Assembly: GCF_033473495.1 (NCBI RefSeq)
Contig: NC_088943.1
Location: 1,034,001-1,098,000, forward strand
Direction: 5' to 3'
Source: Cercospora beticola
Taxonomy: Eukaryota > Ascomycota > Dothideomycetes > Mycosphaerellales > Mycosphaerellaceae
Length of the DNA: 64,000 nucleotides
In this document: piece by piece, positions 6,510 through 47,162 of the stretch
Layout of the letters: each line of letters opens with the position of its first letter
How positions within the stretch are numbered: the first letter of the stretch is position 1
Made by a program: the position numbers and the translations under genes
The notes under the pieces: model-generated
The model's database searches: none
Told to the model about the DNA's origin: nothing
Seen by the model: only the letters and a program-made list of their open reading frames with translations

Positions 6510-9500
6510 ATGGCGCCGCTGCCCATCAAGTTCACCGAGCAGCTGCAGCTGACGGCCGTCGGCATCGAGGTATGGTGGTCAAGGATGCGCGCGTTCTATC
6601 AGACAACATGCTAACAGGCACAATCAGCCGGCGTCAATAGGCTTCAACTCATGTACGCTCGAATCCGACAACTTCGTTTGCGTGCGGCAGAAGGTCAATG
6701 AAGCTGCACAACCTGAGGTGATCATCATCAACCTCAAGAATGGCAACTCCGTGATGAAGCGGCCCATCAAGGCCGACAGCGCCATCATGCACTGGAATAA
6801 GGAGATCATTGCGCTCAAAGCCGGAGGGAAGACGCTACAGATCTTCGACCTCGCGCAGAAGAGCAAGATCAAGAGCGCGACTATGGCGGAAGATGTTGTG
6901 TTCTGGAAGTGGTTCAGTGATACCACGTTGGGATTGGTTACGGACACCAGCGTTTATCATTGGAACATCTTCGACCCAGCCCAGGTCAGCCCGGCCAAGG
7001 TGTTCGAGCGCAATCAGAATCTCTCTGGTTGTCAGATCATCAACTACCGCGTCAGCGATGACGAGAAGTGGATGGTCGTGGTCGGCATTTCGCAGCAACA
7101 GGGACGCGTGGTTGGCGCAATGCAACTCTACTCCAAGGACAGAGGCATAAGCCAGGCCATCGAGGGTCACGCTGCTGCATTTGGCACTTTGAGATTAGAG
7201 GATGCGCCGGCAGATACGAAGCTCTTCACATTTGCGAACCGGTCGGCGACCGGTGCCAAACTGCACATCGTTGAAGTTGACCACCAGGCCACCAACCCGA
7301 CCTTCACGAAGCGCGCTGTCGACATCTACTTTCCTGCCGAGGCCACGAACGATTTCCCTGTAGCGATGCAGGTCTCTTCGAAGTACAAAGTCATCTACCT
7401 GGTGACCAAGTACGGCTTCATCCACTTGTTCGACCTCGAGACCGGTACCACGATCTTCATGAACCGCATTTCGAGCGACACGATCTTCACGACCGCAGGC
7501 GACAGCGAGGGAGCTGGGATTGTTGGCGTAAACAGGAAGGGACAAGTGCTTTCAGTGAGCGTGGACGAGACGACGATCATCAACTACCTCTTGCAGAATC
7601 CCGAGAACGCAGAACTCGCATATAAGTTGGCGTCAAGAGCCGGTCTCCCAGGCGCCGATTCGCTATACCAGCAGCGGTTTGACCAGCTTCTTTCTATGGG
7701 CGATTATCAGAATGCCGCTAAGACTGCTGCGAACTCGCCGCAAGGCTTCCTCCGCACACCTCAGACGATCGAGCGATTCAAGGCCGTGCCGCAACAGCAA
7801 GGGCAACTTTCGGTTATTCTACAATACTTTGGAATGCTGTTGGACAAGGGCAAGCTTAACCAGCACGAAACACTTGAGCTGGCACGACCTGTTCTGCAAC
7901 AAAGCCGCAAGCACTTGCTGGAGAAGTGGATGAAGGAGGGCAAGCTTGGATGCTCTGAGCAGCTCGGCGATCTTGTCCGTCTTCACGATGTTGCGCTTGC
8001 TCAGCAAATCTACCAAGAAGCTGGCGCATCCCAGAAGGTCATCGCTGCAATGGCCGAATCTGGCAACTTTGAGCAAATTCTGCCGTACTCTCGTGAAGCT
8101 GGCTACACACCAGACTTCAACGCCTTAATCCAGCATGTGGCACGTGTCAACCCGGACAAGGCTGCCGAATTCGCTACAAGCATTGCTCGCGAGGACCCTT
8201 CGCTGCTTGACGTTGATCGTGTGCTTGACATTTTCCAAGCTCAAGGCATGGTGCAGCAGGCCACGGCATTCCTTCTGGATGCTCTGTCTGCTAATCTACC
8301 TGAACAAGGACACTTGCAGACACGACTTCTGGAGATGAATCTGCAGAATGCCCCGCAGGTCGCAGATGCTATCCTTGGCAATGAGATGTTCTCGCATTAC
8401 GACAAGGCGCGCATTGCGTCGCTGTGCGAGGGCGCTGGTCTCCTGACGAGAGCTCTCGAGCACTACGAGGACCCTGCATCCATCAAGCGATGCATTGTGC
8501 AGACTGACAAGATCCCAGAAGACTGGCTCATCAACTACTTTGGCCGTCTGACTGTTGATCTCGCAATGGAATGCATGGACGAAATGCTCAAGGTCAACAT
8601 CCGCCAGAATTTGCAAGCAGTCATCAACATCTCCAAGAAGTACAGCGATCTTTTCGGTCCTACCCGAATCATCGACCTCCTCGAGAAGTACCGTACTGCG
8701 GAAGGCCTGTACTTCTATTTGGGCGGCATCGTCAATCTGGCAGAGGACAAAGAGGTCACGTTCAAATACATCGAAGCCGCGACCACAATGGGACAGCTGC
8801 AAGAGGTCGAGCGTGTCTGTCGTGAGTCGAACGCGTATGATCCTGAGAAGGTGAAGAACTTCCTCAAGGAAGCCCAGCTCACTGAGCAACTACCTCTCAT
8901 CATTGTTTGCGATCGTTTCAACTTCGTGCACGACTTGGTTCTGTATCTCTACAAGAACCAGCAATTCAAGTCTATCGAGGTTTACGTCCAGCGCGTCAAC
9001 CCTGCCCGGACTCCAGGCGTCATCGGTGGCCTTCTTGACGTCGACTGCGACGAGAACATCATCAAGGGCCTTCTCAATTCAGTATCACCTGCATCGATCC
9101 CCATCGATGAGCTCGTGTCAGAGGTCGAGTCTCGCAACCGCTTGAAGCTGCTGCTGCCATTCCTCGAGCAGAGCTTAGCTGCTGGCAACCAGCAACAAGC
9201 TGTGTACAACGCTCTGGCCAAAATCTACATCGATTCGAACAACGACCCCGAGAAGTTCTTGAAGACAAACGACCAATACGATACTTTGGTGGTCGGCAAG
9301 TACTGCGAGAAGCGTGATCCAAACCTTGCCTTTATTGCGTACTCCAAGGGCCAGAATGACCTGGAACTGATCTCCATCTGTAACGAGAACGCCATGTTCA
9401 GAGCAGAGGCTCGCTACCTCTTGGAACGCGCCGATTCAGAGATCTGGTCATATGTTCTGTCGGATAACAACATCCACCGTCGTTCGCTGGTCGACCAAGT

Positions 9501-11777
9501 CATCTCAGTTGCAGTCCCTGAGGTAAGTGCACGCCTATTACATCTACGAGCGTTGACTAACATCATACGATAGTCCACCGATCCAGAGCGAGTCAGTATC
9601 GCAGTCAAGGCCTTCATCGATGCCGACATGCCTGTCGAGCTCATTGAGCTGCTCGAGAAGATTATTCTGGAGCCCACCACTTTCTCCGATAATGCTAACC
9701 TTCAGAACCTGCTCATGCTCACCGCAGCCAAGTCGGATCGTGGTCGTGTCGCCAACTACATTCAGCAGCTCGATGCATACAGCCCAGATGACATTGCTCA
9801 GCAATGTATCGAAGTCGGCATGTACGAAGAGGCGTTCTTGATTTACAAGAAGGCCAGCAACCACGCCGAAGCTGCCAATGTCCTCGTTGATCACGTTGTC
9901 AGCATTGACCGTGCTCAGGAGTATGCCGACCAGGTCGACCTTCCTGAGGTTTGGAGCAAGGTCGCCAAGGCCCAGCTTGATGGTTTGCGTATCTCGGATG
10001 CCGTCGAGTCGTACATTCGCGCTCAAGATCCTTCCAACTACCAAGAGGTTATCGAGATCGCCACCCACGCTGGTAAGGATGAAGACCTCGTCAAGTATCT
10101 GCGCATGGCCCGCAAGACTCTCCGTGAGCCACCAGTCGACACTGCTCTCGCCTTCGCTTTTGCTAGGCTGAACGACCTCCCTGCTCTCGAGGAGTTCCTC
10201 CGATCATCGAACGTCGCCAATATCGAAGAGTCAGGTGACAAGGCCTACGCCGAAGGCTACCACGAGGCTGCCAAGATCTTCTTCACGTCTATCTCCAACT
10301 GGGCCAAGCTCGCTACGACCCTCGTCCACTTGGAGGACTACCAAGCCGCTGTGGAGTCTGCTCGCAAGGCTAACAGCGTCAAGGTCTGGAAGCAAGTCAA
10401 TGAGGCATGTGTGGCGAAGAAGGAGTTCCGTCTGGCACAGATCTGCGGTCTCAACCTCATCATTCACGCAGAGGAACTCAACGATCTCGTGCGGCAGTAC
10501 GAGCGTGAGGGCTACTTTGACGAGCTCATCAGCTTGCTCGAAGCCGGCCTTGGATTGGAGCGAGGTAAGTTCAAGTTTGTGACGTTTTCCGTTATACACC
10601 TGCTAACGTGCTTCAGCTCATATGGGCTTATTTACAAGTCTCGGAGAAGCCCTTGCTAAATACCATCCCGAGAGAGTGATGGAGCACCTCAGATTATTTT
10701 GGTCCGTACAGTCCCCAAGAGCCTGCTTCCAAAATGCCAACATCTGCTAATAATGGTCAGGGGGAGAATCAATATCCCGAAGATGATTCGCGCGGTCGAA
10801 CTGGCCCACCTTTGGCCAGAATTAGTGTTCCTTTATAGCCACTACGACGAGTTCGACAACGCTGCTCTGGCCATGATGGAGCGCGCCGCCGATGCCTGGG
10901 AGCACCAGTCCTTCAAAGAGACAATCGTAAAGGTCTCGAACCTCGAGATCTACTACAAAGCTCTCAACTTCTACTTGCAGGAGCAACCGTCGCTCATCAC
11001 GGATCTACTGCAAGTCTTGACCCCCCGCATTGACGTCAACCGGGTCGTGAAGATGTTTGAGAAGTCCGACAACATCCCCTTGATTAAGCCATTCCTGCTC
11101 AACGTGCAGCCGCAAAACAAGCGCGCTGTCAACGACGCCATCAACGACTTGTTGATCGAGGAAGAGGACTACAAGCAGCTGCGTGACAGCGTCAACAACT
11201 TCGATAATTATGAGGCGGTGGCTCTGGCGCAGCGTCTGGAGAAGCACGAGTTGGTGTTCTTCCGACAGATCGCCGCCAATATCTACCGCAAGAACAAGCG
11301 ATGGGACAAGTCGATAGCCCTGTCGAAGCAAGACAAACTCTACAAGGATGCCATCGAGACAGCGGCCATTTCTGGCAAGACCGAGGTCGTGGAGGAGCTT
11401 GTGCGATACGTGAGTCTCCCTCCAATCTCCCTTGGTCAACATCAGCTAACCTTTCATAGTTTGTGGACATCGGCAGCAAGGAATGCTACGTTGGCATGCT
11501 CTACGCATGCTACGACCTCATCCCTCTGCATACCGTTATGGAGATCTCATGGCGCTACGGCCTGACCGACTTCACCATGCCATTCATGATCAATTACTTC
11601 TCACAGCAAGCTGCCACGATAGCAGAGCTGCAGCGGGACAACGAGGAGCGAAAGGAGCGAGAAAAGGCCAACGCACCAAAGGAAGATACTGGTCCAATTC
11701 TTGGACAGTCGAGGCTCATGCTTACTCAGGGACCCATTGCCAACGGACAACCTAATGGCGGGTACAGGGGCTTTTAG
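6510..11777 (+). CDS. CHC1: Clathrin heavy chain
   Basis: Structural triskelion subunit of clathrin coats for endocytosis and trans-Golgi/endosome traffic. The spliced protein is about 1,665 aa, normal for the family. Exons: 6510-6569 (20 codons, MAPLPIKFTEQLQLTAVGIE), 6628-9522, 9574-10564, 10617-10701, 10761-11409, 11460-11777; phases agree throughout. The N-terminal part (residues 1 to about 330) is the beta-propeller, with the typical LESDNFVCVR and NPTFTKRAVDIYFP strings. It is followed by the helical linker and the CHCR leg repeats (for example KYHPERVMEHLRLFWG, RINIPKMIRAVELAHLWPEL, NKRWDKSIALSKQDKLYKDA) and a trimerisation/C-terminal segment with a charged coiled region and a Gln/Gly-rich tail ending GGYRGF. 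The fourth intron uses donor GTCCGT (TTTTG/gtccgt), needed to give FWGRINIPK. Neighbours are functionally unrelated. Confidence 0.97.
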
Positions 11778-29302: not shown

Positions 29303-30789
29303 TCAGTTCTCAATACCAATGTGTACATTCTTCTCGCTTTCTGGGACGTGCTTGAGCTTCTTGTCTGCTTCCCATGTAGGCAGCCCGTTGACGGCGTCTT
29401 CGAGGATCTGCAGCGCGCTCTTCAGCTCGTCTTCGGTGATGACGAGAGGTGGAGCAAGTCGGATGATGTTTTCATGTGTTGGCTTGGCCTGGCAACAGTC
29501 AGTATGTTGTACGAAATGTGAGTTGAAGCATTACTCACCAATAGGCCCTTCTCCTTCATGAGCAAGCACAGCTGATACGCAGTCTTGCCTCCTGTCTTCG
29601 ATTCATCGATCACGATGGCGTTGAGCAGACCCTTGCCGCGCACCAATTGGATCATGGAATTCTTCTTCATGATCTGAGTGATACCGTCTCGGAAAATATG
29701 GCCGAGCTTTTCGGCACGCTCTGTGAGTTGCTCCTCCTCCACAATCTCCAAAGCCTTTATAGCAACAGCACTGCCGAGGGGGTTGCCTCCGTATGTGCTG
29801 CCGTGAGTGCCAGGTTCGATGGTGAGGAGCACCTCTTTCGAACCGAGAACCGCTGAGACTGGGTACATGCCTCCGCTGATCGCTTTGCCGAGCAGGACCA
29901 GATCTGGCTTGATGCCACTCCACTCGTGGCACAAAAGACGTCCTGTTCGCGCAATTCCAGTCTGAATCTCGTCACAAATGAGGAGTACATTGTGCTTTGT
30001 GCAGAGTTCCCGCACTCTTTGAAGGTAGCTCTCGTCTGGAACGACGATTCCAGCCTCTCCTTGGATAGGCTCAACCAAGAATGCAGCAGTCTCTTTGCCA
30101 TGCTTCTCCAGCACTCGCTCCAGCGCGTCTGCGTCTCCAAATGGAATTGGCTCGTTCGTGACTGGGCACACAGATCCAATGCCTGGAAGATATGGCCCGT
30201 AGTTGTCCCGGCTCTCGGGATCCGAGGACATTGTGATTGCAGCAAATGTCCTGCCGTGGAAATTGTCCTGCACACTAAAGACCAATGCCTTGTCTTGTGG
30301 AATGCCCTTCACCTTGTAGCCCCATTTTCGTGCAACCTTGACTGCAGTCTCCACAGCCTCGGCACCAGTGTTCATGGGCAGCACCATGTCGAAGCCCGTC
30401 ATCTTGGTGACCTTTTCTGCGAACTTTGGAAACACATCATTGTAGAACGCTCTGCTGGAGAGCGTCAGACGGCTCGCCTGGTCTGTGAGCGCCTGAATGA
30501 GCTTGGGGTGGCAGTGTCCTTGGTTGACTGCTGAGTACGCGGAGAGGAAGTCGAGGTAGTGCTTTCCCTCAGGATCCCATACTGAAACGCCCTTTGCTCT
30601 TGCAAAGACTATGGGCAATGGGTGGTAGTTGTGTGCCGCGAATCGGCTCTCTGAGTCGATTGCCTGCTGTGACGTTGCAGCGTGGTAGGCAGAAGCGTCG
30701 CTCGAGGGTGTGAAAGTGGCTGCTTTGGCGTTCAGCGCGCCGTTGGTCTTGCTGTCGTTCAGCATATCGTTGATTGCCATTGGCGCCAT
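29303..30789 (-). CDS. CAR2: Ornithine aminotransferase
   Basis: PLP enzyme converting L-ornithine and 2-oxoglutarate to glutamate-5-semialdehyde and glutamate, in arginine catabolism. Exons 30789-29539 and 29488-29303 give 478 aa. Class-III aminotransferase landmarks: [18 protein letters not shown] near the N-terminus, [46 protein letters not shown] (cofactor Asp), [20 protein letters not shown] (the Schiff-base Lys) and [16 protein letters not shown]. The second exon supplies the conserved end [17 protein letters not shown]; reading through the intron would replace it with unrelated sequence. About 45 extra N-terminal residues lack an obvious presequence, so a cytosolic enzyme is likely, as in yeast. 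Divergent from a Zn2Cys6 regulator. Confidence 0.95.
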
Positions 30790-39224: not shown

Positions 39225-41666
39225 ATGTCGAATCCACCGCAGGTAAAATGCAATTCGTACCCGCCCATGAAGATTCAAAAGACGACGCAGCTGTCAGTCA
39301 AAGATGCTCAACCCATTCTCGCGAAATTCCTTGAGCGCACCAAGACGAGACCACATTTACATCCGGACGCGTGGCTAGCGACTGAGGGAGTGCGATGGGG
39401 CTCAAAAGGAGGGCCGAACGGCGGATGGGCCATACATCATCTGAAGCGCATTGAGACCGGCATGCGAGGCGTCAGCCTGATGCCCGAGAGCAGAGAAGAG
39501 CTTGTCGCCAAATTCGGCGATGAAGCTATTCAGCATGGAGTCACTACTAGTGATCCCAACCAGATTGGCGATGATTTCGCAGTGGATGAGGCCATTGCTC
39601 AAACCGAGTCTCACTACGTGGAGGATAAGATTGACCTGACAGGCAAATCTGGCAAGGACTTGACAGCCGCCGAAAAAAAGGCTCGAAAGGAAGCAAAGAA
39701 AAAGCGCAGACAGCAAGAGCAGGCAGACGGAGAGCGAGCAGGGAAGCGCAAGAAGAAGGAGACTGACGTCACCGACCTGGACAAAGATGCGGATGCACAA
39801 TCGAAGGAGTCCTACGAGCGAGAGCAAGAGATCCTCGAGGGCGAGGTTGGCGAGCGTGATGGTGGCTCCAATTCCAAGCAGAATATCCCGCCACCTGTGT
39901 TAGTCACGCACGACTCAGATGGAGAAGTTGTGGTCCAGAAGCAAGCGCGCACTGCAGAGGAAAAGGCTGCACGCAAGGCCGCAAAGAAGGCGAAACGTCA
40001 TGACAAAATGGCTGCTAAAGCCAAGGCAAGTGCCCAAAGTAGTGAGACAGCAGGTCCGGCTGAATTGAGTGATTAGGAGTCACCCAGTTCCAACCAGCCT
40101 GACTACGATCAGCGACTACAGAGACAAATTGCGCAATGTGTCAGGGACATGGAAACTACTGACACCATCGGACGCGGATGGTATGGCGTCATCATCGTGC
40201 CCAAGAAGCAGAAAGACGAGAGCTTTCACGACAAAGCTATGCGCAAGGCCGCCAAGATCATCGTGCAGACGCGGCCAGATCTTGCAATTGGAGATTTTGG
40301 TAAGCCTGTACGGGAACGCGATCACAAGGTGGCTTTCGTGTTGGACAGCAGCGGAAACATCGTGGTACCAAAGAAGCGGAAGAACGAGAACCGAGGAGAG
40401 AAAGCTGCTCGCAAAGCTGCTGAAATGGCCGTGCGCATGCAAACGGCAAACATGGTGCGCATCAGGCAGGACGCTGCCAGTAACGGTTCTCAGGATCCTG
40501 GAGTGGTCGACCTGGCTGGTGATGACTCTCGCAGCATCATCGTGCCGAAGAAGCGGAAGGGCGAGACGCCAGAAGAAAGAGCTGTACGCAAAGCTGCGAA
40601 GAGAGCAAGCAAGGCAGTCAGACAGGCTCACGTGATTGAGGAGCCAGGTCGCAAGTCGCAGCGGCGGGGCACGACAATGGAGGAGAGGTTGGCTCGAAGT
40701 GAAGAACGCCGCAGGAAGTACCAATATGCTGAGTCGCAATTGGACCCACGATTGCAAGGCAAGGACCGCGGGGGTGACTGGGAGTCGGAAGCCTTTGTGT
40801 CCAGGCGCTTTGGCGCTCTTCCAACTCTTCAACTGAACGTCAGAGGTGTTGCGCGTCCGAAGATGGAGACTATGGAGGAGAAGTGCCATGACTGTGGCGA
40901 GACTCACGTCACCAGGAGTTGGTACTGGGCCAGAACGGTTCACGATGCATGAGTCTTACTCTGCCATTCCTGCTACAACTCGAGATATAACGGCCGTTGG
41001 AGAAAATCATGGACAGAGAGTCTTAGGCAACTTGGTGCGAAAAACGCGCCTGAAAAGATCGAATGCCAGCCGCAATACAGCAGCGATGGCCACGAGGATG
41101 CTGAAACGGATGAGACTCGTCTTCGCGATGGCCGTGGCCAGTTCGTCGTGCCAAAGAAGCGGAGAGAAGGGAAAGCAGAACAAAGAGCAGTACGGAAGGC
41201 GGCCAAGGAAGCGACCACCCTCACAGTGCAAGAGTCTGCTGGAGTGGCTCGCGACGCGAACGGTCGTGAACGCGACCGGACTCGGGACGGATGGCATGTT
41301 TCCCGTCTGCATGAGGTACGTGAGCGAAGGGAAGCTGCAGCGGCAGCGGCAGCAGCGCAGGACGGCGAAGAGATCGAGATGTTCGGCTTGGGTAGAAATC
41401 GGTATGGCAACAAGTGGCTGCCATACAAACCGAAGCTCTCCGAATTGGTGGAAGATTGCGTTGAATGCGGGGATACTGAGGCGAACCGGTATCGTTTCGC
41501 AATGCGAGGGCGCAAAACCTGGGTACTCATTTGCGATACCTGCTACCAACGTGCTTGGAGAGCCGAGAGGGCAGCCCGGAAAGGCGACAAGAAGAAGCCC
41601 CAAGCCTACTATGGCGCCCGGAGTGACTATATTCTTCAAGGGAAACTGGACAATGTGCCTTACTGA
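39225..41666 (+). pseudogene. Modular zinc-finger / VPKKRK-repeat reading frame broken by two in-frame stops
   Basis: One frame is open from ATG 39225 to the stop at 41664-41666 except for TAG at 40074-40076 and TGA at 40950-40952. The pieces (283, 267 and 172 aa if begun at the next ATG) are in the same phase. No family name is recognised. N-terminal region: WLATEGVRWG and GGWAIHHLKRIETGMRGVSL, then Lys/Glu/Ala-rich coiled sequence. A basic module recurs about five times: a (I/V)(I/V)VPKK core, then R(K)AAK, near 39930, 40190, 40356, 40530 and 41136. Two GATA-like C-x2-C...C-x2-C fingers lie at 40884-40973 and 41457-41543. The TGA sits inside the first, where the second has Trp (KTWVLIC). 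No in-phase GT..AG intron removing either stop was found. Either a recently disabled gene, a readthrough gene, or sequence error. Confidence 0.7.
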
Positions 41667-41721: not shown

Positions 41722-43238
41722 CTACAATTCCTTTTTCTCGCCGTTTGCGTTCTTAGTCGCCTCCTCAGCAGCATCCTTTCCGCCAATCTTCACATCCTCG
41801 GACGAGATCCTCTTCTCACTCGTCCAACCGATAGCCTTCAATCGCTCAGTCAGGATTGGATGTGAGTAATGGAAAGCGGAATACATCCAGTCAGCATCCA
41901 TAGAGCTCAAATTCTGCTTTTGCAGCTTGATCAAAGCTGCTGCGAGTTCACTTGCATAGCCAAGCTCAAAGGAGAAAGCATCTGTACAAACGTTAGCATT
42001 GGTAGCAGAAACGAAAGTTATTGGAAAAGGTAAACCTACCAGCCTCGAACTCGAACTTTCTCGTCAGTGCGTTCATGCCGAACTTGACCAGCGAATCCGT
42101 CGGGCTCAGAACTTCGTTAAAGAGCAGGAACCCGATGAGAATCGGCCTCTCCGTCTCAAAGCCAAATGCCCTGTATAGACTATTGTTCTTGATGAACACG
42201 CTAAAGAGCGCGAAAATGTAGAATAAATGGAACGAGCTGATTCCCAACAGCTTCGCAGTGTGACCCATCTTCCAGTGTCCGAGCTCATGCGCCAAAACAG
42301 CCTCAATTTCTGGTGTCGTGCTCTTTTCAATCAAAGTATCGTAGAGGACAATCTGCTTTTGAAGACCAGGAAGACCAGTGAAGTAGGCATTGCTGTGGCT
42401 GCTTCGCTTCGAGCCATCGATGACTTGGAGTTTGCCGAGGGGGAATTTGAGCTTCGCTGCGAGGGCTTCGACGCGGTCTTTGAGGTCACCGGCGGGGAGA
42501 GGGGTGAGCTTGTTGAAGAGCGGGACGATTACGCTGGGGTAGATCGTAATTGCCAGGAGTTGGACCAGGAGCATGAAGACCCAGATGTAGAGGAAGAACT
42601 AGACGCAAAGTCAGCATGAGGAACATGATCTCTTTCCCGCGATTGGCCAAACATACGTTGTCTCCCGTCTTCTGAATAATCTTGAAGAACGCAGCACCGA
42701 TCGGTATTCCGAAGGCCAGACTCAGTGCCTGCCCCTTGATCATATCCGTGATCCATAATCCCACAGTCTGCTTATTGAACCCGAATTTCTCCTCCAGCAC
42801 AAAGTGATGATACCAGCTGAATGGCAGTCCAATGATCGTCTCAACCCACGAGTAGGAGAAAGCGAAAACCAAGGACCTCGTAATCTCTCCTCCAAACCTC
42901 GCCGGGAAGAATCGATTCACCAACAATCCACTGACAGCCCACCAGGCAGGATAGAAATCGTACGTGATGAGAGCGAGGTTCTTAAGCTGGTTGAAGGCGC
43001 CATTAACGACTCCGAATTGGGCTTTGGCACGGCCGTAGGCTTGGGATTTGTCGTGGGTTTTCTGATCGATTTCGTTTTTGAGCTGGGCGGGGATGCGCTG
43101 TGATTTGAGGATTTGGTATTGGCGGTAAGTGAGGTAGGATTCGAGGGCGTATTCGGCGACGGAGAAGGTGATGATGAGCGTTTTCCAGGGGATGTAGTCT
43201 TGATCGATAGCGGCGCCGAGGCGGCGGAGGAGGTCCAT
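41722..43238 (-). CDS. STE24: CAAX prenyl protease STE24 (M48 zinc metalloprotease)
   Basis: Integral ER/inner-nuclear-membrane protease that removes the -AAX tripeptide from prenylated proteins, and in yeast also matures a-factor. Exons 43238-42657, 42598-42040 and 41981-41722 give 466 aa, normal length. Zinc site: VLAHELGHWKMGH (HExxH), with the third ligand Glu in RKFEFEADAFSFELG, which is completed only after splicing the second intron. Several membrane segments are visible (for example LVFAFSYSWVETIIGLPFSW, FFLYIWVFMLLVQLLAITIY, LFYIFALFSVFI). DGSKRSSHSNAYFTG is the conserved Ste24 loop. The C-terminus is Lys-rich (KNANGEKKEL). Its stop lies 56 bp from the stop of the broken zinc-finger gene (convergent). 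Confidence 0.96.
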
Positions 43239-45560: not shown

Positions 45561-47162
45561 TCACGCCTCCCTCCACTTCCCCTCCGGAATCTCAACAGTA
45601 GTATTCTCATCCCTGGGCCTGCGTCTCCGCACTCTCACATCAACACCACTCTGATGATGAAACCACCCTCCAAAAACCTTCCACGTCTTCTCTTCCAACC
45701 CAACAAACTCAAAGTCCCGCAAAATGGTCGGAAGAAGTTTATACATTTCAACATTAGTGATATGCTTCCCGATACAAATCCTCGGTCCGTATCCAAATTG
45801 TAACATATGTCTCTCCATCTCATTGGCCTTCTCCACGCCATTTCGCATCCAGCGTTCGGGTATGAATCGATCTGCGTCTTCACCGAAAATGTTCGTGTTG
45901 AAGTTAATAACGCAGGCGTTCATGATTACGCCTTGACCTTCGGGGAAGAATTGGCCACAGATAATTTCGCCGCCGGGAGGGACGACTCGGGGGAGGCCCA
46001 GACCGAGGGATGAATGCATGCGCATTGCTTCGCGAACGACTGCGTGGAGGTAGGGGAGCTTGATACAGGCGCCGAATCGCAGAGGGTATGTGAGGCGACC
46101 TTCTGCAAAGGCTTGGTCGATTTCATTGCGGAGATTTTCGAGGGCTGAGGGGTTTTTGTGAAGGTGGTAGAAGATGCTCGTCAGAGCGATGGCTGTTGTG
46201 TCGCTGCCTGCCCAGATCATTGTCCAGATTTCAGCTGTGACGTCTAGTTCTGTCCAGTGCTGCTTCCGATCTGGTGATGTGTTAACGAGATCCAGCAGTC
46301 TGTTCAAAACGTCGTTCTTGGGCTTTGATTCCTGAGTCGCACGTTCTTGTAAGCGCTGTTTGACCGCCTTGTGTGATTGCGTGATGACTTCGAAAAAGCC
46401 TCTAGCTCCGACTCTTGTGCTTGGGTAGATCATCTCCGCTGCAAAGACAATTGGCCTCAATGGCTTGGAGATATATGTAATGGCAGAAGATAAGGATGGC
46501 ATCGTCACCATCAACGCACACCAGTTATTGTAATCGATGTTATCTCTGATAAACCCAAAGCCTCCTTGCCTCCCATAGAAGATATCTCCAACCACGTCGA
46601 AGGTGTATTTCCTGAGCCAGGCTGACATATCGAACTCCACTTTCGCTTCCGCTAGAAGTTCCATTCTTTCGTAGAAGAGCGCTATCAGGCGGTCTACGCA
46701 GGGCTCAAATTGCAAGATCGAAGCTTGGGTATAGAGAGGAGCCACAATCCGGCGTCTGACTGAATGCTTGGCCTCATCTCTCTCCTCGAAATTGCCAGCT
46801 CGAGGACCGATGCTGGGGTCAAAGCCAGAGTAGAATTCTGCTTTGGGAAAGACATTCGCTGGGCCGTATATCGTCTCTATCGCAGCTGGATCGGAGATCA
46901 TGATTTGACCTGGTGTGATGCGAACCAGAGATCCGTACCTCTCGTGCAGGAGGAGGTCATTGTGTCCGGCCAAGCCATGTCGTACACGCCAGAAGTACCA
47001 CAGGTCCGATATAGAGGCTAATAATGGGCCGGGAAAGCGGCTGTAAGGGTGAAAGCAGCGATTGTAGATTGCTCTGCTTACGGCATACGCAATGACACTC
47101 GCAGTGGCAATCTGAATCGCCAAAACGATTGTCGTTGAATCGAGCAGCTTGAAATATGGCAT
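45561..47162 (-). CDS. Cytochrome P450 monooxygenase (pisatin-demethylase-like group)
   Basis: Intronless 533-aa frame from ATG 47162. N-terminal membrane anchor at residues about 9-32 (TIVLAIQIATASVIAYAVSR), then the hinge FHPYSRFPGPLLASISDLWY typical of fungal microsomal P450s of the CYP57/CYP65-type assemblage. I-helix oxygen-binding motif AGSDTT, K-helix ExxR in VVREAMRM, the PERW motif (FIPERWMRN), and the heme loop FGYGPRICIGKHITNVEMYK with the Cys ligand. Length is normal and all key residues are present, so the enzyme should be active. Substrate unknown; no biosynthetic cluster partners are adjacent. Confidence 0.95.
   Translation of the reverse strand: MPYFKLLDSTTIVLAIQIATASVIAYAVSRAIYNRCFHPYSRFPGPLLASISDLWYFWRVRHGLAGHNDLLLHERYGSLVRITPGQIMISDPAAIETIYGPANVFPKAEFYSGFDPSIGPRAGNFEERDEAKHSVRRRIVAPLYTQASILQFEPCVDRLIALFYERMELLAEAKVEFDMSAWLRKYTFDVVGDIFYGRQGGFGFIRDNIDYNNWCALMVTMPSLSSAITYISKPLRPIVFAAEMIYPSTRVGARGFFEVITQSHKAVKQRLQERATQESKPKNDVLNRLLDLVNTSPDRKQHWTELDVTAEIWTMIWAGSDTTAIALTSIFYHLHKNPSALENLRNEIDQAFAEGRLTYPLRFGACIKLPYLHAVVREAMRMHSSLGLGLPRVVPPGGEIICGQFFPEGQGVIMNACVINFNTNIFGEDADRFIPERWMRNGVEKANEMERHMLQFGYGPRICIGKHITNVEMYKLLPTILRDFEFVGLEEKTWKVFGGWFHHQSGVDVRVRRRRPRDENTTVEIPEGKWREA

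What the first reader, a model, noticed from the sequence alone, without database searches (positions are those of the whole stretch)
39225..41666. Modular zinc-finger reading frame interrupted by exactly two in-frame stop codons
Three open segments lie in one phase over 2.4 kb and are separated only by TAG (40074) and TGA (40950). The 24 codons after the TAG and the 65 codons after the TGA are open and coding-like. The TGA falls inside a C-x2-C...C-x2-C finger whose second half (VLLCHSC) follows directly, and the paralogous finger at 41457 has Trp (TGG) next to the matching VLIC. The protein also repeats a basic VPKK...RKAAK module about five times, a combination I do not recognise from a named family. 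Options are recent pseudogenisation, programmed readthrough, RNA editing, or assembly error. Short removable introns were sought and none fits the phase.
Basis: partly seen in the sequence, partly recalled or inferred. Interest (0 to 1): 0.75.

Follow-up and report, generated by a model that had tools for sequence, protein, structure and literature searches.

The report
Two neighbouring fungal genes, one truncated
What looked like one zinc-finger gene broken by two stop codons is most likely two adjacent genes of a leaf-spot fungus: the first stop is the ordinary end of a complete gene, and only the second looks like a real, probably recent, truncation of a young, fast-changing zinc-finger gene.

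Summary
The sequence facts hold, but the frame is not one gene. The window matches Cercospora beticola: a named protein, CB0940_11165, is 100% identical, on a contig of the same length as ours.

Gene A (39225-40076) is a complete 283-aa protein conserved in Mycosphaerellaceae. Two of its three closest relatives end in the same alignment column, so TAG 40074 looks like a normal end.

Gene B (40149-41666) has relatives in named Cercospora species and three unnamed sources. All five other models that cover its N-terminus begin at the Met matching 40149. B carries four VPKK modules and two C4 fingers and looks internally duplicated.

TGA 40950 falls where all five finger-1 orthologues have Trp. 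Public annotation hides it with a 105-nt intron that lacks a good branch site and deletes half the finger. B is disrupted elsewhere too (C. berteroae, C. zeina). Strong conservation is limited to B's first ~97 residues, all upstream of the TGA. The part after the TGA has not changed faster than in relatives.

Best reading: a recent nonsense mutation leaving a 267-aa finger-less protein. RNA editing fits the TGA poorly. The TAG lies in an editing-like hairpin loop, but it is also a conserved gene end. Interest is low to moderate.

The parts
39225..40076 (+). Gene A, complete, 283 aa, single open frame ending in TAG 40074-40076; conserved protein of unknown function in Mycosphaerellaceae and relatives
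   Evidence: 30 proteins at E<=1, the window's own included. P0002 (73%) and P0004 (69%) end in the same alignment column; P0003 (74%, N-terminus missing) ends three columns earlier; Pseudocercospora P0006 and P0007 are 281 aa.
39912..39998 (+). C-terminal basic module of gene A, homologous to the VPKK modules of gene B
   Evidence: coordinates; hhalign of the gene B and gene A alignments: probability 93%, E 3.2e-7, 36 columns, 53% identity.
40062..40090 (+). Predicted RNA hairpin with the A of TAG (40075) in its loop; could also form a 7-nt loop with the A in third position
   Evidence: 31-nt fold -9.9 kcal/mol, z -3.56, 0 of 200 shuffles as stable; 61-nt fold z -2.56, 4 of 200; 27 of 886 TAGs (both strands of the window) have the A in a hairpin loop at this stability or better; 5 of 886 are as stable and allow a 7-nt loop with a stem of 4 or more pairs. 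May be chance.
40077..40148 (+). Spacer of 72 nt (24 open codons) between gene A and gene B; not coding-like
   Evidence: chance of 24 open codons 0.35; codon score no better than another frame.
40149..41666 (+). Gene B, start shared with orthologues; in this genome interrupted by TGA 40950-40952 (267 + 237 codons)
   Evidence: the METTDTIGRGWYG-type start is shared by P0032 to P0036; P0031 (CB0940_11165) is this locus with an intron modelled over the TGA.
40149..40439 (+). Conserved N-terminal ~97 residues of gene B with basic modules 1 and 2
   Evidence: mean pairwise identity 0.84-0.93 per 20-residue block up to residue 100, then 0.30-0.57; mean 90% versus 49%.
40524..40610 (+). Module 3 of gene B; the C. 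berteroae model appears out of frame over this stretch
   Evidence: a +1 reading compatible with the C. berteroae peptide recovers TGSIVVPKKRK, score 48; best of 300 shuffles 43.
40884..40976 (+). Finger 1 of gene B (C-x2-C-x22-C-x2-C counting the stop), split by TGA 40950-40952
   Evidence: Trp at this position in 5 of 5 finger-1 orthologues and in all 10 fingers matched.
40922..41026 (+). Segment removed as an 'intron' in public model CB0940_11165 (GTACTG...TCTTAG, 105 nt); probably an annotation artefact
   Evidence: reproduces P0031 exactly; no CTRAY in it, the only YTNAY sites lie 68 and 84 nt from its 3' end.
41130..41213 (+). Module 4 of gene B
41457..41546 (+). Finger 2 of gene B, intact (C-x2-C-x21-C-x2-C, Trp before VLIC)
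   Evidence: single-finger relative P0037 matches both finger units (E 1.1e-13 and 1.0e-8).
41607..41663 (+). Conserved C-terminal tail of gene B (YYGARSDYILQGKLDNVPY)
   Evidence: nearly identical in C. kikuchii, C. berteroae and C. zeae-maydis proteins.

Best explanation
The feature is two neighbouring same-strand genes that happen to share a phase (a one-in-three chance). Gene A is complete and ends at the TAG. Gene B starts 72 nt later at ATG 40149. B is a young, fast-evolving, basic zinc-finger protein known mainly from Cercospora. It was apparently built from modules related to gene A's C-terminus plus a C4 finger, with a module-and-finger unit duplicated inside the gene. In this genome a nonsense codon at 40950 replaces the invariant Trp of finger 1. 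The likely product is therefore a 267-aa protein that keeps the strongly conserved N-terminal ~97 residues and three basic, nuclear-signal-like modules but loses both fingers. The stop is probably recent, because the sequence after it has not diverged faster than in relatives. Shown: separate genes by orthology of proteins, the Trp position, and no acceleration. Inferred: that the stop is real in the organism, that the truncated protein is made, and that it keeps some function.
For: Gene A: 30 proteins (window's own included); of the three closest, two end in the same column and one three columns earlier. Gene B: eight proteins at E<=1, six of them (P0031-P0036) starting at the same Met. Trp at the TGA position in 5 of 5 finger-1 orthologues. 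Poor splice and branch signals in the annotated intron. Related disruptions elsewhere: a frameshift signature and Cys-to-Tyr in C. berteroae, C. zeina model ending at 333 aa, and only the C-terminal half modelled in C. zeae-maydis. Conservation cliff at residue ~97. Relative rate after the TGA: 28 unique changes in beticola versus 29 in berteroae, and 23 in beticola versus 34 in kikuchii. No other match at E<=0.05 outside this locus in the own genome for either gene.
Against: All evidence on relatives is from proteins; no relative's DNA could be read, so gene models (some predicted without RNA) may be wrong and the A-B spacing elsewhere is unknown. The tail of gene A varies: by a pattern, 15 of 29 relatives end within 29 residues of the module, 11 run on for 63-251, and 3 were not matched. 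72 nt is very short for a 3' end plus a promoter, which hints at a shared transcript. The conserved C-terminal tail and intact finger 2 show that the region after the TGA was under constraint until recently, and may still be. Codon-usage signal around and after the TGA is weak, and in the first half of finger 1 an antisense frame scores better. No RNA or read data.
Confidence: 0.72

Rival explanations
1. The public model is right: a real 105-nt intron (40922-41026) is spliced out, giving a 470-aa, one-finger protein.
For: Splicing it reproduces CB0940_11165 exactly and in phase. P0031 is listed on three contigs. How that model was made is not known to me; RNA support is possible.
Against: Donor GTACTG, and no CTRAY branch motif in it. 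It removes half of a finger that the C. kikuchii, C. berteroae and C. zeina models and two unnamed relatives keep as coding sequence. A small intron wrongly introduced over an in-frame stop is a described annotation error in Fusarium CHE1 (PMC11169179, passages).
Confidence: 0.1
2. The TGA is a sequencing or assembly error, or a minority allele, and gene B is intact in the organism.
For: No decay after the TGA, C-terminal tail conserved, invariant Trp position.
Against: Nothing specific indicates an error. Disruption of B in other species makes a real lesion plausible.
Confidence: 0.09
3. The TGA is decoded as Trp or read through (A-to-I editing or programmed readthrough), so full-length B is made.
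For: Editing of UGA would give UGG, the invariant Trp. The segment after it evolves like that of relatives.
Against: The edited A would have G at -1 and lie in a predicted stem, whereas fungal editing favours U at -1 and hairpin loops (PMC11156358). TGA is followed by GTC, not the CTA readthrough context (recalled). A library search for A-to-I editing with Dothideomycetes gave one paper, whose one passage naming the class reports no editing in it.
Confidence: 0.05
4. Stop-loss editing or readthrough at the TAG makes an A-B fusion, so the reader's single-gene view is right at the first stop.
For: The A of the UAG lies in a stable hairpin loop with U at -1, G at +1 and A at +3. A and B are in phase with an open 24-codon spacer, only 72 nt apart.
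Against: Close relatives end gene A at or near the same place, and 15 of 29 within 29 residues of the module. The spacer is not coding-like. 27 of 886 TAGs in the window have the A in a hairpin loop this stable. B has its own conserved ATG.
Confidence: 0.04

Closest known systems
CB0940_11165, hypothetical protein of Cercospora beticola (P0031)
   Same: This very locus; 100% identity over 89% of segment 2.
   Different: Modelled with an intron that removes the TGA and half of finger 1.
Cercospora kikuchii CKM354_001241500 (P0032, 496 aa) and C. berteroae CBER1_01735 (P0034, 455 aa)
   Same: Orthologues of gene B: same start, module repeats, two fingers, same C-terminal tail.
   Different: Trp in place of the TGA. 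C. berteroae has a frameshift signature in module 3 and Cys-to-Tyr in finger 1. C. kikuchii's module 4 is degenerate.
Gene A family: Pseudocercospora HII31_08289 (P0006) and MYCFIDRAFT_216077 (P0007), and relatives
   Same: Orthologues of segment 1 alone, 281 aa, ending soon after the basic module.
   Different: 46% and 45% identity; no Pfam family above cut-off; function unknown.
Fusarium graminearum CHE1 (PMC11169179, passages read)
   Same: Zinc-finger protein gene with an in-frame stop that automated annotation hides with a small intron or by starting at a downstream Met.
   Different: The CHE1 stop is UAG, conserved among Fusarium species and shown to be edited. The stop inside a finger here is UGA, in a poor context, and absent from the orthologues seen.

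Membership tests
GATA-type zinc finger (PF00320) | Match to the Pfam profile at or above its cut-off | tested here: not met
   12 matches in the own genome at E<=10, none at this locus; no GATA match in the orthologues scanned at E<=10. Only a faint resemblance to a GATA-finger protein on C5 (E 0.07).
Gene A family (conserved Mycosphaerellaceae protein) | Full-length alignment to named orthologues, ending soon after the C-terminal module | tested here: met
   The end varies: 15 of 29 relatives within 29 residues of the module, 11 longer, 3 not matched by the pattern.
Gene B family (two-finger protein of Cercospora) | Shared start, VPKK modules, two C4 fingers and the conserved C-terminal tail | tested here: met
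   finger 1 interrupted in this genome.
Nonsense-disrupted gene (recent pseudogene or truncated allele) | In-frame stop where orthologues have a sense codon | tested here: met
   Trp in 5 of 5 finger-1 orthologues.
Nonsense-disrupted gene (recent pseudogene or truncated allele) | Accelerated change or further lesions after the stop | tested here: not met
   28 versus 29 and 23 versus 34 unique changes; no further stop in 237 codons. Points to a recent stop, or to continued constraint.
Fungal A-to-I stop-codon editing site | U at -1 and edited A in a hairpin loop, for TGA 40952 | tested here: not met
   G at -1, A in a predicted stem.
Fungal A-to-I stop-codon editing site | U at -1 and edited A in a hairpin loop, for TAG 40075 | tested here: met
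   permissive context only; 27 of 886 TAGs in the window fit as well.
Fungal A-to-I stop-codon editing site | A-to-G change in cDNA | not testable with these tools
   No RNA data.
Programmed stop readthrough | TGA followed by CTA (recalled motif) | tested here: not met
   TGA is followed by GTC, TAG by GAG.

The most novel reading that the evidence does not exclude
The UAG at the end of gene A is a stop-loss A-to-I editing site: an A after U in a hairpin loop that can form an anticodon-like 7-nt loop. Editing it would fuse gene A to gene B under some conditions and make a longer basic protein. That would be an editing-controlled gene fusion, and the first editing case in Dothideomycetes that I know of. 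The genome has two apparent DUF726 (Ame1-domain) loci, so a cofactor of that kind is not ruled out.
Probability: 0.04. Interest if true: 0.75.

Novelty: new member of a known kind. Interest (0 to 1): 0.27.

Why it matters
It corrects a reading that would have suggested a doubly interrupted gene or recoding. It also flags a probably wrong public gene model, CB0940_11165. Biologically, gene B keeps a ~97-residue conserved head while its finger-bearing rest changes fast and looks disrupted in more than one species; this is a small, testable example of a young gene shedding domains. If the TAG hairpin were an editing site, it would extend A-to-I mRNA editing to a fungal class where the sources read here report none.

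Tried and rejected
One gene across both stops: rejected for the TAG by orthology. In-phase introns over the TAG: the best-scoring one (39899-40144) has acceptable signals but deletes gene A's conserved module; the next (40042-40215) deletes gene B's conserved start (introns of 35-400 nt only; my scoring did not rank the annotated 40922-41026 segment in the lists printed). Gene B as a GATA factor: no profile match. Known families: no Pfam or NCBIfam match above cut-off for the gene A or B proteins scanned; Myb/HTH-type matches in the tail of the Dothistroma relative P0019 are below cut-off, two of them only just. No PDB sequence match at E<=0.05. Structures: AlphaFold models poor (mean pLDDT 67.6 for A, 47.4 for B) and Foldseek found nothing at E<=0.001, so no fold is claimed. 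Cys-rich tail of the P. eumusae gene A relative as a source of gene B's fingers: no support. DNA of relatives: none in the viral or prokaryote collections, as expected. Papers: CB0940_11165 is in no paper of the library; the listings (in 46 and 75 only part of the hits is listed) showed no title on this locus.

Results against my reading: conserved C-terminal tail and intact finger 2 after the TGA; no acceleration after the TGA; 72-nt A-B gap; weak codon signal near and after the TGA; longer gene A tails in 11 of 29 relatives.

Full report
WHERE IT IS. The window lies in a 36.07-Mb, 10-contig genome, on a contig of 2,471,293 bases. Segment 2 is 100% identical to CB0940_11165 of Cercospora beticola over the 89% that aligns, on a contig of the same length, so I take the genome to be C. 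beticola.

THE OBSERVATION. The frame 39225-41666 has exactly two internal stops, TAG 40074 and TGA 40950, and the modules and fingers are as described. By the window's stop frequency the 24 codons after the TAG are not remarkable (probability 0.35) and the 65 codons after the TGA only mildly so (0.06). The 291 codons between the stops (3e-6) and the full 237 codons after the TGA (3e-5) are. Codon scores, trained on five window ORFs, favour the true frame for gene A and for B up to the finger, do not favour it for the 24-codon spacer or the first half of finger 1, and favour it only slightly after the TGA.

THE TAG IS A NORMAL GENE END. A search with segment 1 alone gave 30 proteins at E<=1, the window's own included. 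Twenty of the 30 were aligned. P0002 (73%) and P0004 (69%) end in the same column as the TAG, and P0003 (74%, N-terminus missing) three columns earlier. Pseudocercospora fuligena and P. fijiensis proteins are 281 aa against 283 here. By a pattern, 15 of 29 relatives end within 29 residues of the C-terminal module, 11 run on for 63-251 residues, and 3 were not matched. So the end varies across genera, but not among the closest relatives. Gene A matches no Pfam or NCBIfam family above cut-off.

GENE B STARTS AT 40149. A search with segment 2 gave eight proteins at E<=1 among those of 0.55-1.75 times its length; a profile search with those eight gave the same eight (7993 best candidates scored). 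Of them, six (P0031-P0036) begin at the Met corresponding to 40149. P0037 is a distant single-finger relative from an unnamed source, and P0038 (C. zeae-maydis) holds only the second half. P0037 matches both halves of gene B (E 1.1e-13 and 1.0e-8), which supports an internal duplication of a module-and-finger unit. The module itself is homologous to the C-terminus of gene A (hhalign probability 93%, E 3.2e-7, 36 columns). That B grew from a copy of A's tail is an inference. The own genome gave no other match at E<=0.05 outside this locus (the tool scores best candidates only).

THE TGA. A pattern that does not ask for Trp found 10 fingers in the eight proteins, the window's own finger 2 (as P0031) included; five are finger-1 orthologues. 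All 10 have Trp four residues before the third Cys. The TGA takes that position. The public model avoids it with an intron 40922-41026, which reproduces P0031 exactly. Its donor is GTACTG and it has no CTRAY branch motif. A scan for strong intron-like sites (GTRNGY donor and CTRAY required) gave 50 in the window, 23 of them 49-60 nt long; this illustrates local style and proves nothing. The intron would delete half of the finger. The C. kikuchii models were predicted by BRAKER2 with protein hints (PMC8496228, passages), so orthologue models are predictions too.

DISRUPTION ELSEWHERE. In C. berteroae finger 1 has Tyr for the second Cys, and the stretch at module 3 looks frame-shifted: a +1 reading compatible with it recovers TGSIVVPKKRK, score 48 against a best of 43 in 300 shuffles. 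C. zeina's model ends at 333 aa inside module 4. P0033 and P0035 end at 321 and 310 aa, possibly by contig or intron effects. C. zeae-maydis has only a 217-aa C-terminal model. Of the seven Cercospora-type models (P0031-P0036, P0038) only C. kikuchii's is an uninterrupted two-finger protein, and its module 4 is degenerate. Pairwise identity is 0.84-0.93 per block to residue 100 and 0.30-0.57 beyond (90% versus 49% by region). The truncated C. beticola product would keep all of the conserved part.

RECENT OR BYPASSED. With C. zeae-maydis taken as outgroup (not tested by a tree), the part after the TGA shows 28 unique changes in beticola against 29 in berteroae, and 23 in beticola against 34 in kikuchii. 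So there is no acceleration: the stop is recent, or is somehow bypassed.

EDITING. Fungal A-to-I editing favours U at -1 and hairpin loops and often edits UAG (PMC11156358, parts 1-2 of 3 read). It is reported in Sordariomycetes and Pyronema, and was not found in the Eurotiomycete and Leotiomycete tested (same source). Its cofactor Ame1 carries a DUF726 domain; extra copies arose in lineages that include editing ones, and also in Leotiomycetes, where editing has not been found (PMC11087585, passages). C. beticola shows three DUF726 matches at two places, which I read as two loci; whether either is an Ame1 orthologue was not tested. TGA 40952 fits badly (G at -1, in a stem). TAG 40075 fits well (loop, U at -1, G at +1, A at +3; z -3.56 for 31 nt, -2.56 for 61 nt). 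But 27 of 886 TAGs in the window have the A in a hairpin loop at least as stable, and 5 of 886 are as stable and allow an anticodon-like 7-nt loop with four or more pairs. I had the editing idea before seeing the folds, but this is one site, and the context only permits editing.

MECHANISM. Most likely A is translated to the TAG as an ordinary basic protein, and B from ATG 40149 to the TGA as a 267-aa basic, probably nuclear protein without working fingers. The PKKRK-like stretches resemble nuclear import signals (recalled, not tested). How B is transcribed with 72 nt between the genes is open; a shared transcript is possible.

VERDICT. An ordinary gene end plus one probable recent nonsense codon in a young lineage-specific gene.

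Noticed in passing
window 40149-40439 versus 40440-40949: Sharp conservation cliff in gene B: about 90% identity among the Cercospora-type proteins up to residue ~97, about 49% right after it. Unexplained; could mark the real functional part or a constraint at nucleotide level.
   Followed up: partly
window 40077-40148: Only 72 nt separate the gene A stop and the gene B start on the same strand, very short for a fungal 3' end plus promoter; suggests a shared or overlapping transcript.
   Followed up: no
gene A relatives P0008, P0014, P0019, P0022, P0030: The tail of gene A differs by genus: Cys-rich in Pseudocercospora eumusae, Myb/HTH-like (below cut-off) in Dothistroma, other long tails elsewhere. 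Either gene-model fusions with downstream genes or real tail swapping.
   Followed up: partly
G000:C4:1776480-1777490 and G000:C1:5127666-5128765: Two places with DUF726 domains (the Ame1 domain of the fungal mRNA-editing cofactor) in this Dothideomycete genome.
   Followed up: no
window 41993-43238 (-), 45561-47162 (-), 29422-30789 (-), 6682-9573 (+): Genes in the window: CAAX prenyl protease (M48), cytochrome P450, class-III aminotransferase, clathrin heavy chain.
   Followed up: no
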